In this document: positions 6,840 to 15,748 of the stretch, piece after piece
Layout of the letters: every line of letters starts with the position of its first letter
Position numbering within the stretch: the stretch's first letter is position 1
Source: Pseudonocardiaceae bacterium
Lineage (GTDB): Bacteria > Actinomycetota > Actinomycetes > Mycobacteriales > Pseudonocardiaceae
Direction of reading: 5' to 3'
NCBI GenBank assembly: GCA_025937115.1
Contig: JAICSB010000031.1
Location: 1 to 15,748, forward strand
Length of the DNA stretch: 15,748 nucleotides
Notes under the pieces: generated by a model
The model's input: only the letters and a program-made list of their open reading frames with translations
Databases searched by the model: none
What the model was told of the DNA's origin: nothing
Position numbers and translations under genes: made by a program

Positions 6840-8375
6840 TCAGGCCTCAGCGACGGCGGTGGCTGCGGTGACGGCCGCCTGCGCAGGTGCACCGCGCAGC
6901 GCCCGATGGACCGCCGCGCCGACCACCACCAACGCGGCCACGAACAGCAGCGCGAGATACTGCAGCACCCAGCTGGTTCCCGCCGGGTCGTACACCGCCT
7001 GCCGTGGCCAGGCGATGTTGACCATCATCGCGACGCCGTAGGCCACCGCGAACAGGTTCACCCCGAGCCCCCAGCGGCCGAGCGAGAAGCCGCCCGGTTG
7101 CTTCGGCGGCCGGCGCCGGCCCAGCCGAGCTCCCAAGGCCGGCACGGTGACCAGCAGGTACGCCAGGTACACGATCACCACCGAGGTGCTGGTCACTGCC
7201 GCGAACGCCGCCGGATTACCCAGGTTGATCAGTAGCACGCCGATCGCGAGTGCCCCCACCGCGACGCCGGTGAGGATCGGCGTCCCGGTCTGCGGGCTGA
7301 CCTTGGCCAGCAACCGCCTGCCGGGGAGCCGGCCGTCGCGCGCCATGCTGAACATCACCCGCGACGCCGAGTTCTGGATCGCCAGACAGGCGGACACGAT
7401 CGAGATCGCGACCACTGCGAGCAGCGCCCGACCGAGCGCGGAATTCAGCTGGCTGGTGATGACGTAGGCGATGCCGCCGGTGGACAGCTGACCGTCGGTC
7501 AGCGAAGGCGCCGCCATCAGTGCCGCCACGATCATGAACCCGCCACCGACGAAGGAGACCAGCAGCGCACGCAGGATCGCCGACGGCACCACGCGCCGTG
7601 GCGCAGCCGTCTCCTCGGACAGCTCCGCGGCACTGTCGAAGCCGTACATGACGTATGCCGCCATGAGCGTGGAGGCGAGGAAGGCATACAGGTAAGGGCT
7701 ATTACCGGACACGTTGAGCGTCTTGGTGACCACCCCGGGACCCCGTTGCGCATGGCCGAACAGCAGCACCAGCAGCAGCACCACACCGACCAGCTCGCAG
7801 GTCACACCGATCCCGTTGATCAACGCCATGAAGCGCACCCCGACGGCGCTGATCACGGTGGCCAGTGCGATGAGCACCGAGCCCAGCAGGATCCCGTTGG
7901 CCGCGCCGGACGCTGAGGTGATCGACGGGTCGCTGCCGACGATCTGGAACCCTGACCACACTGCGGGCAGCACCGCCTGCAAAGCAATGCCGATGGCGGC
8001 CACGCTGACGACGTAGCCGATCATCATCGCCCAGCCGGCGAACCAGCCGACGGTCTCGCCCGCGAGCCGCCGCGACCACTGATAGATGCATCCGGCCAGC
8101 GGCCAGCTCGCCGCCAGCTCAGCGAAGACCAGCGCTACGCACAACTGGCCGGCGAACACCAGCGGCCAGGTCCAGAAGAACGCCGGGCCGCCGAAGGAGT
8201 ACCCCAGCGCGAAGAGCTGGAACACCGTGGTGAGGATCGAAACGAAGGAGAACCCCGCGGCGAACGAGGAGAAGGCGCCGAGCCTGCGGTGCAGCTCCTG
8301 CCGGTAGCCGATGCTGCGCAGGTCGTCGGCGTCCGGGCCGGCAGTCGAGTTCGTGACGTGAATTGGAATTTTCAT
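6840..8375 (-). CDS. APC-superfamily permease, candidate guanidine-module transporter
   Basis: This 511-residue polytopic protein has about 12 hydrophobic segments. Its N-terminus is cytoplasmic and reads GYRQELHRRLGAFSSFAAGFSF, typical of APC amino-acid/GABA-type permeases. The MYGFDSAAELSEETAAPRRVVPSAI region (about TM6-7) and the SRVMFSMARDGRLPG loop (TM8-9) are strong family signatures. The ATG at 8375 overlaps the hydrolase stop (ATGA) and has GGAAGG 8 nt upstream, so an open frame extending to 8843 is only an overlap artefact. It is co-transcribed with the guanidine hydrolase-like gene behind the guanidine riboswitch. This suggests it moves guanidine, a guanidino compound or a counter-substrate; substrate specificity cannot be read from sequence. 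The C-terminal tail is Ala-rich. Confidence 0.9.
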   Translation of the reverse strand: MKIPIHVTNSTAGPDADDLRSIGYRQELHRRLGAFSSFAAGFSFVSILTTVFQLFALGYSFGGPAFFWTWPLVFAGQLCVALVFAELAASWPLAGCIYQWSRRLAGETVGWFAGWAMMIGYVVSVAAIGIALQAVLPAVWSGFQIVGSDPSITSASGAANGILLGSVLIALATVISAVGVRFMALINGIGVTCELVGVVLLLVLLFGHAQRGPGVVTKTLNVSGNSPYLYAFLASTLMAAYVMYGFDSAAELSEETAAPRRVVPSAILRALLVSFVGGGFMIVAALMAAPSLTDGQLSTGGIAYVITSQLNSALGRALLAVVAISIVSACLAIQNSASRVMFSMARDGRLPGRRLLAKVSPQTGTPILTGVAVGALAIGVLLINLGNPAAFAAVTSTSVVIVYLAYLLVTVPALGARLGRRRPPKQPGGFSLGRWGLGVNLFAVAYGVAMMVNIAWPRQAVYDPAGTSWVLQYLALLFVAALVVVGAAVHRALRGAPAQAAVTAATAVAEA

Positions 8376-9490
8376 GAAGCTGCCTTCCGTGGCAAGTGAC
8401 CGGCGCGCACCAGGCAGCCGAGGGTGTCGCAGATGACCCGGGTCGCGATGAGCGCCGTGATCTCGGCGTTGTCGTAGGGCGGGGAGCACTCCACGACTTC
8501 GATTCCTGCCAGCGGACGCGCGGCGATGAGCTGGATGAACTTCAGCACCTCGCGGGGCAGGAAGCCGCCAGGCTCGGGCCATCCCGTGCCTGGGACGAAT
8601 GCGGCGTCGAGGCAGTCGACGTCGAAGGACAGCCAGACGGCGTCGGTGCCGTCCCACGCGACATCCAGGGCGCGCTGCGCGGCTTCCTCGATGCCCATCT
8701 CGACGCAGTCGGTGACGGTCATGATCGTCGTGCCGCGCTCCCGGCCGACCTGAACGCCAGGCCGCGGCGCCTGCCAACCGCCGATGCCGATCTGCACCAG
8801 GTTCTGCGGCGACACGTTGGGGATGTCCGTGGCGTGAAACCACGGCGTGGTGTGCATCCGCTCGTCGAGGTCGGTTTCCTGGGTGTCGACGTGGCGGTCG
8901 AAGTGGATGATGCCGAGCTTTCCGCCAGCTAGGTGTTCCGCGACCGCGCGGGTAGTCGGGTAGCCAATGGAGTGGTCGCCACCCAGTACCACCGGAAAGG
9001 CGCCGGAGGAGAAGACGTGCCCGACCGCCTTCGAGATCTGGTCGAAGGTCTTCTCGATGTTGCCCGGAATGGTGAACACGTCGCCGAGATCGGCAATGGT
9101 GATCGACTCACGGAGATCGACGCCGAGCTCGAAGCTGTACGGCCCGTATAGCGCGGAGATCTTGCGGATGCCCTGCGGACCGAAGCGGGTTCCGGACCGA
9201 TACGTGGTGCCGCCGTCGAAGGGTGCGCCGAGCACTGCCACGTCGTATTCGCCGCAGCGGCGGACGTCCTCGACATAAGGTGCCTTGAGGAAGGTGTTGA
9301 TGCCAGCGAAATGCGGCAGCTCACCTCGGGAGAATGTGGGGATCCTTCGGTCGACGATCGAGTCGGCGCCTTGCAAACCGAGTTCAAGACCCCGGGCGAT
9401 CTCCTGTTCCCATTTCGTCGCCGGCAGCGCTGCTTCCGCCTCGACGGCGTATCGCGCCTCCGGCCCGTAGTTGTTGTGCAGTTCCTCCAC
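8372..9490 (-). CDS. gdmH: ureohydrolase, probable Ni-dependent guanidine hydrolase
   Basis: This 372-residue arginase/agmatinase-fold enzyme should hydrolyse a guanidino group to urea plus an amine or ammonia. Metal ligands are visible: His173 in GGDHS, Asp198/His200/Asp202 in HFDRHVD, and Asp290/Asp292 in SFDVD. Two features depart from ordinary agmatinases: DRHVD instead of DAHxD, and Trp304 in GTGWPEPGG. Both, and the long N-terminal extension of roughly 80 residues, match what I recall of the cyanobacterial guanidine hydrolase (Sll1077/GdmH). The guanidine-I riboswitch upstream is strong contextual support. The start is GTG at 9490 with GGAGG 7 nt before it. It overlaps the permease by 4 nt, and urease is the next intact system upstream, able to consume the urea. 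Agmatinase or guanidinobutyrase activity remains the alternative. Confidence 0.82.
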   Translation of the reverse strand: MEELHNNYGPEARYAVEAEAALPATKWEQEIARGLELGLQGADSIVDRRIPTFSRGELPHFAGINTFLKAPYVEDVRRCGEYDVAVLGAPFDGGTTYRSGTRFGPQGIRKISALYGPYSFELGVDLRESITIADLGDVFTIPGNIEKTFDQISKAVGHVFSSGAFPVVLGGDHSIGYPTTRAVAEHLAGGKLGIIHFDRHVDTQETDLDERMHTTPWFHATDIPNVSPQNLVQIGIGGWQAPRPGVQVGRERGTTIMTVTDCVEMGIEEAAQRALDVAWDGTDAVWLSFDVDCLDAAFVPGTGWPEPGGFLPREVLKFIQLIAARPLAGIEVVECSPPYDNAEITALIATRVICDTLGCLVRAGHLPRKAAS

Positions 9491-9493
9491 GGT

Positions 9494-14959: not shown

Positions 14960-15271
14960 TCACATCGCTTCGGCGGGTTGTAGGACAGCTGAGCTGCCAC
15001 CCACCCGAGGCTGCGGAACGACCGGCGTGACTGCCTTCTTGACCTCGTCCATTGCGGGTCGGGCAGCGGGGTGCTCGACCAGGGCGAGTACCCGGGAGGC
15101 CATGAACCGAGCGGTGCGTACCGGCGTGCCGCCACGGGTGACCTCGGTAACCTCCACGATGCCGCGGCCATGAGTGATCTCCACCCGCCGGCCATTGCGG
15201 GTGGCTTCGATTTCGTAGGTCCGAGTGGTGCCGCCGGCGTCGATGACAATCTCGGTCCGGTCACCCTTCAT
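14960..15271 (-). CDS. urease-linked small protein of unknown function (103 aa)
   Basis: This gene is not recognised. The 103-residue product starts MKGDRTEIVIDAGG and its first 60 residues alternate charged and beta-branched residues, suggesting a small beta-sheet domain. The rest is Ala/Pro-rich and probably flexible. There are no Cys and only two His, so it is not an obvious metal carrier. The ATG at 15271 has AAGGA about 9 nt upstream. Its stop overlaps an alternative ureA GTG, and the first ureA codon used lies 60 nt further on, so it is very likely the first gene of the urease operon. A role in urease assembly or regulation is only inferred from position. Confidence 0.75.
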   Translation of the reverse strand: MKGDRTEIVIDAGGTTRTYEIEATRNGRRVEITHGRGIVEVTEVTRGGTPVRTARFMASRVLALVEHPAARPAMDEVKKAVTPVVPQPRVGGSSAVLQPAEAM

Positions 15272-15518
15272 GGCTTGCCATCCTTATCGTTGCCGGGCGA
15301 AGCGGGGTCCGGGCCGAGTGTGCTGGTCGCCTCTCGGCGAAGGGCACACCGCAGCTTCAGCCGAACGATCGTGTACAACTACCCATCAACCCCGATCATT
15401 CCAGGCCACGGGGCTACGCCGGGAAAGGACTGTCGCAGCGTGCAGACGTGCTCCACACCTCCCCGTGGGACAGGAGAGGCTGATGAGACGAACCCCTGGT
15501 GACGTCGGCTCAGAGATT
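15272..15518 (-). other. intergenic region upstream of the urease operon
   Basis: This 247-nt stretch has no gene. It contains an 8-bp palindrome ACGATCGT (15365-15372) and a weak CCCCG/CGGGG dyad (about 15391-15412). I found no GlnR-type AC-n9-AC array and no second guanidine aptamer. It probably carries the urease promoter, but I cannot assign -10/-35 elements. Confidence 0.4.
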
Positions 15519-15748
15519 TCAGATGGCCATGGCGGCGCGGACATCGGCGTGGGCGTCGGCGCCGCCGGCGCCGGTAGAGGTGATCCGGCCGGCTTCCATG
15601 ACGTAGTAACGGCTCGCCGCGGCGAGGGCGAATCCCACGTGCTGTTCGACCAGCAGGATTGACAGACCCCCGCGGGAGGTCAACGACAGGATCGTCTGCT
15701 CGATCTCCGCCACCACGGACGGCTGGATGCCCTCAGTCGGTTCATCCA
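15519..15748 (-). CDS. urtE: urea ABC transporter ATP-binding protein UrtE, partial (C-terminal part)
   Basis: The frame is open to the window edge and covers about the last 76 residues of an ABC ATPase. The visible Walker B/D-loop sequence DEPTEGIQPSVVAEIE is the form characteristic of UrtE, distinct from the DEPSLGLAP of LivF. The H-loop segment SILLVEQHVGFALAAASRYYVMEAGRI follows, and the natural TGA is at 15519. The start, Walker A and signature motif are outside the window. UrtE is one of two ATPases of the UrtABCDE high-affinity urea importer, which fits the adjacent urease operon. A LivF-type amino-acid ATPase is the alternative. Confidence 0.85.
   Translation of the reverse strand, partial: DEPTEGIQPSVVAEIEQTILSLTSRGGLSILLVEQHVGFALAAASRYYVMEAGRITSTGAGGADAHADVRAAMAI

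What the first reader, a model, noticed from the sequence alone, without database searches (positions are those of the whole stretch)
8372..15748. One locus linking guanidine sensing, guanidine hydrolysis, urea import and urease
A guanidine-I riboswitch, a GdmH-like ureohydrolase and a permease sit next to a full urease operon and a urtE-type ATPase. Established knowledge: guanidine hydrolase yields urea plus ammonia, and urease splits urea to ammonia and CO2. The layout therefore suggests a complete guanidine-to-ammonium route in an actinobacterium, different from the urea-carboxylase/carboxyguanidine route. That both enzymes are nickel-dependent adds a shared metal demand. The pathway is inference; the parts are seen in the sequence.
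Basis: partly seen in the sequence, partly recalled or inferred. Interest (0 to 1): 0.85.

Follow-up and report, generated by a model that had tools for sequence, protein, structure and literature searches.

The report
Guanidine-to-ammonia gene cluster in actinobacteria
This actinobacterial DNA carries a guanidine sensor, a guanidine-splitting enzyme and a likely importer right beside genes that import and split urea, so guanidine could be turned into ammonia from one place in the genome; the pathway is known from other bacteria, but the repeated physical joining to urease genes in actinobacteria looks new.

Summary
RF00442 aptamer at 9649-9544 (88.1 bits); GdmH at 9490-8372, in the guanidinase group (N. 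inopinata guanidinase 726 bits, Synechocystis GdmH 564, next solved ureohydrolase 181) with the four named guanidine-site residues; APC permease at 8375-6840; UreA, fused UreB-UreC, UreF, UreG, UreD at 14963-10430; the last 75 residues of UrtE. The nearest genome has complete urtABCDE.
Corrections: urease lies upstream of the riboswitch, not under it; the permease lies left of the stated range; the route is known from Synechocystis and comammox Nitrospira.
New from comparison: in this unnamed genus 8 of 11 genomes have gdmH, aptamer and urease, and 3 of 11 have no intact gdmH, no aptamer found and no urease. Of 396 actinobacterial genomes, 14 have gdmH; 12 of 14 have urease (69 of 396 overall), within 10 kb in 7 of 14. 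Linkage changed about 9 times on the GdmH tree. In 9 of 97 loci a riboswitch precedes gdmH with urease downstream on the same strand, against a published general statement. Activity and ligand binding were not shown.

The parts
15519..15748 (-). C-terminal 75 residues and stop of UrtE (urea ABC transporter ATPase), cut by the window edge
   Evidence: 87-97% identical stretch in 6 genus loci; relative in G001 passes TIGR03410
14960..15271 (-). orf103, 103-aa protein of no known family between urtE and ureA, 4-nt overlap with ureA
   Evidence: conserved 81-99% in 6 genus loci
14598..14963 (-). ureA, urease gamma subunit
   Evidence: NF009712 168 bits, cut-off 123
12544..14601 (-). fused ureB-ureC, urease beta and alpha subunits in one 685-aa ORF
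   Evidence: TIGR00192 residues 4-95 (94.1, cut-off 90.3); NF009685 residues 116-685 (1116, cut-off 907)
11855..12544 (-). ureF, urease accessory
   Evidence: PF01730 82.5 bits
11254..11865 (-). ureG, urease nickel GTPase
   Evidence: TIGR00101 267 bits, cut-off 204
10430..11284 (-). ureD, urease accessory
   Evidence: PF01774 102 bits
9650..9725 (-). conserved stretch just upstream of the aptamer, probable promoter or regulatory region of the gdmH unit; holds GTTAC-n6-GTCAC at 9702-9687
   Evidence: BLAST matches to L025, L028, L029, L035 at 80-84% over 61-135 nt, none to L026 or L030; alignment of 9 loci; role inferred
9544..9649 (-). guanidine-I riboswitch aptamer
   Evidence: RF00442 88.1 bits, gathering 63
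9491..9543 (-). leader between aptamer and gdmH start with Shine-Dalgarno GCGGAGG; expression platform inferred
   Evidence: alignment of 9 genus leaders; no terminator-like site
8372..9490 (-). gdmH, guanidinase (guanidine hydrolase)
   Evidence: 9fek 726 bits, 7esr 564 bits, next 181; residues T96, H213, W304, E334
6840..8375 (-). APC-superfamily permease, 511 aa, likely guanidine importer; 4-nt overlap with gdmH
   Evidence: TIGR03428 657 bits, below its cut-off 740; PF13520

Best explanation
The window holds a guanidine-use unit (guanidine-I riboswitch, guanidinase GdmH, APC permease) placed directly behind a urea-use unit (urtE end, ureA, fused ureBC, ureF, ureG, ureD; urtABCDE complete in the nearest genome) in an unnamed genus of Pseudonocardiales. 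Guanidine entering through the permease binds the aptamer and switches on gdmH and the permease; GdmH hydrolyses guanidine to urea and ammonium; the neighbouring urease splits the urea; the Urt transporter brings in outside urea or recovers leaked urea. Shown here: the parts, their order, family placement, active-site residues, co-occurrence in the genus and recurrent linkage in other actinobacteria. Inferred: ligand binding, substrate, transport, regulation. In this window the urease is upstream of the riboswitch and so is not under it; the two units are neighbours, not one guanidine-switched operon. In other actinobacteria the order is reversed and the urease follows the riboswitch and gdmH.
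For: Aptamer full length, above gathering score. GdmH 726 bits to 9fek, 564 to 7esr, 181 to the next solved ureohydrolase; 9FEK is the N. inopinata guanidinase (PMC11410670 passage). T96, H213, W304, E334 correspond to N. inopinata T105, H222, W313, E344 named in PMC11410670 section 5; among 100 fetched rows (3 duplicates) T, H and W are kept in 100 and E in 97, the aligned stretch ending before it in the other 3. In the genus gdmH in 8 of 11 genomes, the aptamer in the same 8, urease in the same 8; G005 and G011 lack all three, G008 has a broken gdmH and no urease. Phylum sample: gdmH 14 of 396, urease 69 of 396, both in 12 of 14 (Fisher p 2e-8). gdmH within 10 kb of ureC in 7 of 14, against 0 of 31 other ureohydrolases in urease-bearing relatives. 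Linkage needs 9 changes on the GdmH tree, at least 4 forced by well-supported branches. Urea carboxylase over cut-off in 0 of 11 genus genomes. urtABCDE complete in G001.
Against: No GhaA/GhaB-type nickel chaperone was identified in the window; G001 has hypA and hypB on another contig; comammox guanidinase loci also lack nearby nickel chaperones (PMC11410670 section 5). The permease misses its TIGR03428 cut-off (657 of 740) and is 28-29% identical to the Nitrospira permeases, so its cargo is open. G004 has urease on another contig although 5 kb upstream of its aptamer are held. Outside the genus, 3 of the relatives have a guanidinase (G014, G017, G038) and 0 of 3 have ureC near it; G017 shows no aptamer. 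Of actinobacterial tree rows, 25 are linked and 25 with 8 kb held on both sides are not. In G009 the conserved block upstream of the aptamer overlaps the end of ureD, which leaves 22 nt between them. Tests are not corrected for kinship and several genomes are incomplete. No enzyme or ligand assay.
Confidence: 0.85

Rival explanations
1. The enzyme is an agmatinase or another guanidino-compound hydrolase (guanidinobutyrase, guanidinopropionase), feeding urea to the urease as part of arginine or polyamine breakdown.
For: The listed relatives that bear a name are called agmatinase; it belongs to the arginase superfamily and matches agmatinase models below their cut-offs (PRK02190 220 of 302, TIGR01230 163 of 174).
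Against: All 5 NCBIfam matches lie below their cut-offs; 726 and 564 bits to guanidinases against 181, 169 and 162 to proclavaminate amidinohydrolase, guanidinobutyrase and guanidinopropionase; the guanidine-site residues are present; a guanidine aptamer lies 53 nt upstream.
Confidence: 0.05
2. Detoxification rather than feeding: the unit removes guanidine made inside the cell or taken up by accident, and the urease neighbourhood is incidental.
For: Many guanidine riboswitches control exporters (PMC12186494 passages); Sll1077 relieves guanidine toxicity in cyanobacteria (PMC8390497 passages).
Against: The partner gene is an APC permease, the superfamily proposed as importer in comammox, not an SMR exporter; recurrent linkage to urease and joint absence with urease point to use of the urea nitrogen.
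Confidence: 0.15
3. Neighbourhood by chance or by general clustering of nitrogen genes, with no functional tie between gdmH and urease.
For: 25 actinobacterial rows with enough flank are unlinked, as many as are linked; 0 of 3 guanidinase-bearing relatives outside the genus are linked; orders and strands differ between lineages.
Against: 7 of 14 linked in the phylum sample against 0 of 31 control ureohydrolases; about 9 changes on the tree; abutting or overlapping genes from gdmH to ureD in L116 and L137.
Confidence: 0.06
4. The urease operon of the window is transcribed on through the riboswitch into gdmH, so the two are partly one transcript.
For: All genes on one strand; in G009 only 22 nt lie between the ureD stop and the aptamer, and the conserved block upstream of the aptamer overlaps the end of ureD there.
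Against: 780 nt with a PIN gene lie between in the window and 918 to 3981 nt in five relatives. Read-through would not put urease under guanidine control in any case.
Confidence: 0.12

Closest known systems
Nitrospira inopinata (comammox) guanidine-I riboswitch, APC permease, guanidinase (PMC11410670, section 5 and passages)
   Same: Same aptamer class, same enzyme group with the same four residues, an APC permease in the unit, no nickel chaperones nearby, urease in the genome
   Different: Gene order there is permease then guanidinase; Nitrospira permeases of four loci are 28-29% identical to this one; urease is elsewhere in that genome. Here urease lies next to the unit
Synechocystis PCC 6803 GdmH operon (PMC8390497 and PMC12186494 passages; Funck 2022 recalled, not held)
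   Same: Guanidine-I riboswitch and guanidinase; urea goes to urease
   Different: ABC importer and nickel-delivery genes in that operon (PMC12186494 passage); none seen here; urease elsewhere there (PMC11410670 Figure 1 legend)
Guanidine carboxylase route (guanidine carboxylase, carboxyguanidine deiminase, allophanate hydrolase)
   Same: Guanidine-I control and nitrogen release from guanidine
   Different: Carboxylase not found: 0 of 11 genus genomes over the TIGR02712 cut-off; the other two enzymes were not searched
urtABCDE-ureABC-ureFGD urea-use cluster (common layout, recalled)
   Same: Urea ABC importer followed by urease and accessory genes
   Different: UreB and UreC fused; guanidine unit attached downstream

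Membership tests
Guanidine-I riboswitch (RF00442) | Covariance-model score above gathering, full-length aptamer | tested here: met
   88.1 bits, 63 needed, positions 1-107
Guanidine-I riboswitch (RF00442) | Binds guanidinium and changes expression | not testable with these tools
   needs in-line probing and a reporter assay
GdmH / guanidinase | Closer to characterised guanidinases than to other ureohydrolases | tested here: met
   726 and 564 bits against 181 or less
GdmH / guanidinase | Thr and Trp of guanidine specificity, plus His and Glu | tested here: met
   T96, H213, W304, E334
GdmH / guanidinase | Nickel chaperone genes in the same operon (Synechocystis type) | tested here: not met
   none identified in the window; hypA-hypB on another contig of G001; comammox loci lack them too, so not a feature of the whole family
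GdmH / guanidinase | Hydrolyses guanidine, nickel-dependent | not testable with these tools
   needs enzyme assay
Urease operon | UreA, UreB, UreC and accessory UreD, UreF, UreG | tested here: met
Urease operon | Metal-binding residues of UreC | not tested
   only whole-model scores were used
Urea ABC transporter UrtABCDE | All five subunits | tested here: inconclusive
   met in the nearest genome G001; the window holds only the end of urtE
TIGR03428 urea-carboxylase-system permease | Score above curated cut-off | tested here: not met
   657 bits, 740 needed
Guanidine-riboswitch-controlled urease | Urease genes downstream of the aptamer on the same strand | tested here: not met
   in the window urease is upstream; met in 9 of 97 unique loci elsewhere

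The most novel reading that the evidence does not exclude
In several actinobacterial lineages urease has been drawn into guanidine-riboswitch operons: aptamer, transporter, guanidinase and the ureABCFGD set on one strand with mostly abutting genes (clearest in L116 and L137; also L084, L085, L090, L138-L141), so guanidine itself switches on the whole route to ammonia. The window shows another order, apparently reached separately, in which a guanidine unit sits downstream of a urea cluster and the two are mostly kept or lost together.
Probability: 0.7. Interest if true: 0.6.

Novelty: new variant of a known kind. Interest (0 to 1): 0.52.

Why it matters
It extends guanidinase-urease nitrogen use from cyanobacteria and nitrifiers to actinobacteria, points to cultured strains for growth tests (Dactylosporangium L059, L061; [quoted passage not shown] It also means that the actinobacterial proteins of this group that databases call agmatinase (named rows) are probably guanidinases.

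Tried and rejected
Agmatinase reading: rejected on scores and residues. Riboswitch control of the urease in this window: rejected on order. Intrinsic terminator as expression platform: 0 found in 8300-10500, 0.7 expected. Free folding of nine leaders gave no single shared structure by eye, so the switch mechanism stays open. CCTCGCG is shared by 8 of 9 leaders and is complementary to the Shine-Dalgarno region GCGGAGG shared by the same 8 (by eye; L027 lacks both); this fits translational control but shows nothing. GlnR-like box (motif recalled): GTTAC-n6-GTCAC lies in the conserved block, but the loose pattern has 4 matches in the window with 2.3 expected, and upstream of urtA in G001 there is 1 one-mismatch match with 1.7 expected, so it is only a lead. 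A codon-position filter for gene calling kept chains in L116 and L137-L141 but failed in L084, L085 and L090, where the chain rests on ORFs and tblastn hits. Structure prediction and fold search were not used because sequence similarity to solved guanidinases was decisive.
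Full report
What is there. On the minus strand, reading right to left, the window carries the end of urtE, a 103-aa unknown gene, ureA, a fused ureB-ureC, ureF, ureG, ureD, a PIN-domain gene, a guanidine-I aptamer, gdmH, an APC permease and aroC. With ORF starts as called, the genes from orf103 to ureD overlap by 1 to 31 nt, and gdmH overlaps the permease by 4 nt. The aptamer scores 88.1 bits with 63 needed.

The enzyme. GdmH scores 726 bits to PDB 9fek and 564 to 7esr/7oi1, and 181 or less to any other solved ureohydrolase (best 60 of 73 shown). 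PMC11410670 (passages; section 5 whole) names 9FEK as the N. inopinata guanidinase and 7OI1 as Synechocystis GdmH, and lists Thr105, His222, Trp313 and Glu344 as residues that may matter for guanidine catalysis. Through the alignment (chain numbering shifted by 2, worked out from the residue letters) these are T96, H213, W304 and E334 of the window's protein; all are present. Among 100 fetched relatives (3 of them duplicates) T, H and W are kept in 100 and E in 97; in the other 3 the aligned stretch ends before it.

Where it comes from. The window's own assembly is not held. The nearest genome, G001, shares 42% of the window's sampled 31-letter words. Its contig has the length of JAHEXI010000006.1, a 'Pseudonocardiales bacterium' metagenome assembly, and the same gene distances, so I take them as one. 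In G001 the order is the same, and upstream lie urtA, B, C, D and E, each above its cut-off.

Co-occurrence in the genus. Of 11 genomes, 8 have gdmH (that of G002 is cut by a contig end), the same 8 have the aptamer and the same 8 have urease. G005 and G011 have none of the three. G008 has a broken gdmH and a broken permease close to a contig end and no urease; its missing aptamer may be due to the contig end. Fisher p 0.006, not corrected for kinship; G005 and G011 are 87% complete. In 6 of the 8, gdmH and urease lie on one contig with urease upstream of the aptamer; the contig of G006 ends first, and G004 has 5 kb upstream of its aptamer without urease, which is on another contig.

Separate units. 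Between the ureD stop and the aptamer lie 780 nt in the window, 22 nt in G009 and 918, 1019, 1590, 1817 and 3981 nt in five others. Three of these gaps (L026, L030, L035) share most or much of their sequence, and L025 shares a part with L035; the others differ. A block next to the aptamer matches in most pairs: 77-89% over 55-135 nt, though the window itself has no BLAST match with L026 or L030 there; a nine-locus alignment shows conserved columns across it. I infer a promoter of its own for gdmH; in G009 the block overlaps the end of ureD, so read-through is possible there. Either way the urease of the window is upstream of the riboswitch and not under it.

How common is the link. In an even draw of 396 actinobacterial genomes, 14 have gdmH at E 1e-100 or better and 69 have urease at 1e-60 or better (two candidates scored per genome); 12 of the 14 have both (G367 by a fragment), p 2e-8. 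G001 is one of the 14 because the draw is centred on it. In 7 of 14 (G001, G135, G146, G155, G178, G278, G348) ureC lies within 10 kb on the same contig. As a control, of 34 other ureohydrolases (E 1.1e-31 or better) among 61 relatives, 31 lie in urease-bearing genomes and 0 of 31 within 10 kb of ureC; the nearest is 18.9 kb. Against this: in the same 61 relatives three genomes outside the genus have a guanidinase (G014, G017, G038) and 0 of 3 have ureC near it. The two sets of genomes differ, drafts split contigs, and kinship is not corrected.

Orders. 24 of 97 are linked, that is, hold ureC in the fetched stretch, with a gap of at most 7.3 kb; L115, where only ureG and ureD are held before the contig end, is not counted. 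Urease then gdmH on one strand: 9 (six of the window's genus; Dactylosporangium L059 and L061; Phytohabitans L068). gdmH then urease on one strand: 12, of which 9 also have a guanidine-I aptamer upstream (L084, L085, L090, L116, L137, L138, L139, L140, L141); all nine pass the Rfam gathering score. The other three: L110 none found in 4 kb, L117 with 335 nt held, L136 none found. Opposite strands: 3 (L082, L097, L113). The linked loci are all actinobacterial; none of the cyanobacterial, Nitrospira-group, Chloroflexota or Tectimicrobiota loci held ureC, several with short flanks. On a tree of 98 rows (97 loci and the window), 25 linked, 48 unlinked with 8 kb or more on both sides and 25 left out, the state changes 9 times, at least 4 times by starred branches (quick tree). 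By my count from that tree 25 of the 48 unlinked rows are actinobacterial.

Riboswitch-led gdmH-urease chains. L137 (genome G278) reads: aptamer 1-97, ABC transporter genes like the nickel/oligopeptide type (SBP_bac_5, ATPases, two permeases), gdmH 6065-7177, a metallo-beta-lactamase/isochorismatase-fold fusion 7178-8680, ureA 8677-8979, ureB 8976-9482, ureC 9479-11185, ureF, ureG, ureD; ORFs as called leave gaps of at most about 120 nt. L116 has the same fusion after gdmH and ORFs of similar lengths before it, whose families were not tested except one ORF in another frame without a match. L084 has an APC-type permease between gdmH and ureA, and L085 and L090 carry relatives of it at 82-84% identity in the same place. 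L138 has a sodium/solute-symporter-like protein (below the model's cut-off), a carbon-nitrogen hydrolase and an ORF of no family there, and L139 the same ORF lengths. [quoted passage not shown] These nine loci suggest otherwise for some actinobacteria; transcription was not shown.

Regulation in the window. No terminator-like site was found. GCGGAGG before the start codon and an upstream CCTCGCG are shared by 8 of 9 genus leaders, so control of translation start is my guess; PMC11410670 section 5 says that this class acts on transcription.

Nickel. No nickel chaperone besides ureG was identified in the window. hypA is over the Pfam cut-off in 11 of 11 genus genomes; in G001 it lies next to hypB on another contig. 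A shared metal demand is plausible; the N. inopinata enzyme was found with one nickel and one manganese (PMC11410670 passage).

Literature. Searches of the held library: (listings of up to 20 papers each). None of the listed titles and abstract starts, and none of the passages read in PMC11410670, PMC12186494, PMC8390497, PMC13296017 and PMC12342949, describes gdmH joined to urease genes. PMC13296017 (passages) describes a urease operon beside a urea carboxylase pair, with guanidine-I riboswitches in another region. Funck 2022 is not held and may show such neighbourhoods; the claim of newness is limited to this library.

Verdict. A sound observation, a pathway that is known, and a genome arrangement that I did not find described: a new variant of a known kind.

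Noticed in passing
window 12544-14601: UreB and UreC are fused in one ORF in the window (and in G001, 685 aa); the ureB and ureC ORFs of L085, L137 and L138 are separate.
   Followed up: partly
window 9736-10086: PIN/VapC-like gene between ureD and the aptamer; the length of this gap varies from 22 to 3981 nt in the genus.
   Followed up: partly
window 14960-15271: 103-aa protein of no known family, conserved between urtE and ureA in 6 genus loci, overlapping ureA by 4 nt.
   Followed up: partly
window 2208-3242: Serine beta-lactamase-fold protein next to DUF6895 within an aroC-aroK-aroB stretch; far below the cut-offs of the 25 models shown, so not called a resistance gene by them.
   Followed up: no
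L036 (G008): gdmH and permease broken near a contig end and no urease in that genome: the unit seems to be decaying there.
   Followed up: partly
L137 7178-8680, L116 9502-11028: Fusion of a metallo-beta-lactamase fold and an isochorismatase fold (weakly like biuret hydrolase, below cut-off) between gdmH and ureA in riboswitch-led chains; may act on another guanidine- or urea-related compound.
   Followed up: partly
L138 6027-7850: Carbon-nitrogen hydrolase between gdmH and urease in a riboswitch-led chain, a candidate for another nitrogen-releasing step.
   Followed up: no
L033 (G038): Aptamer and permease point away from gdmH: divergent arrangement.
   Followed up: no
L032 (G017): gdmH at 90% identity, but no guanidine-I aptamer found in the genome (139 of 259 first-look candidates scored).
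   Followed up: no
L136 (G155): Two PPE-family genes lie between gdmH and the urease genes; no aptamer found in the stretch.
   Followed up: no
L084, L085, L090, L116, L137-L141: RF02514 (5' ureB sRNA) matches antisense inside ureC in 9 of 9 loci scanned; probably reflects conserved coding sequence rather than an sRNA.
   Followed up: no
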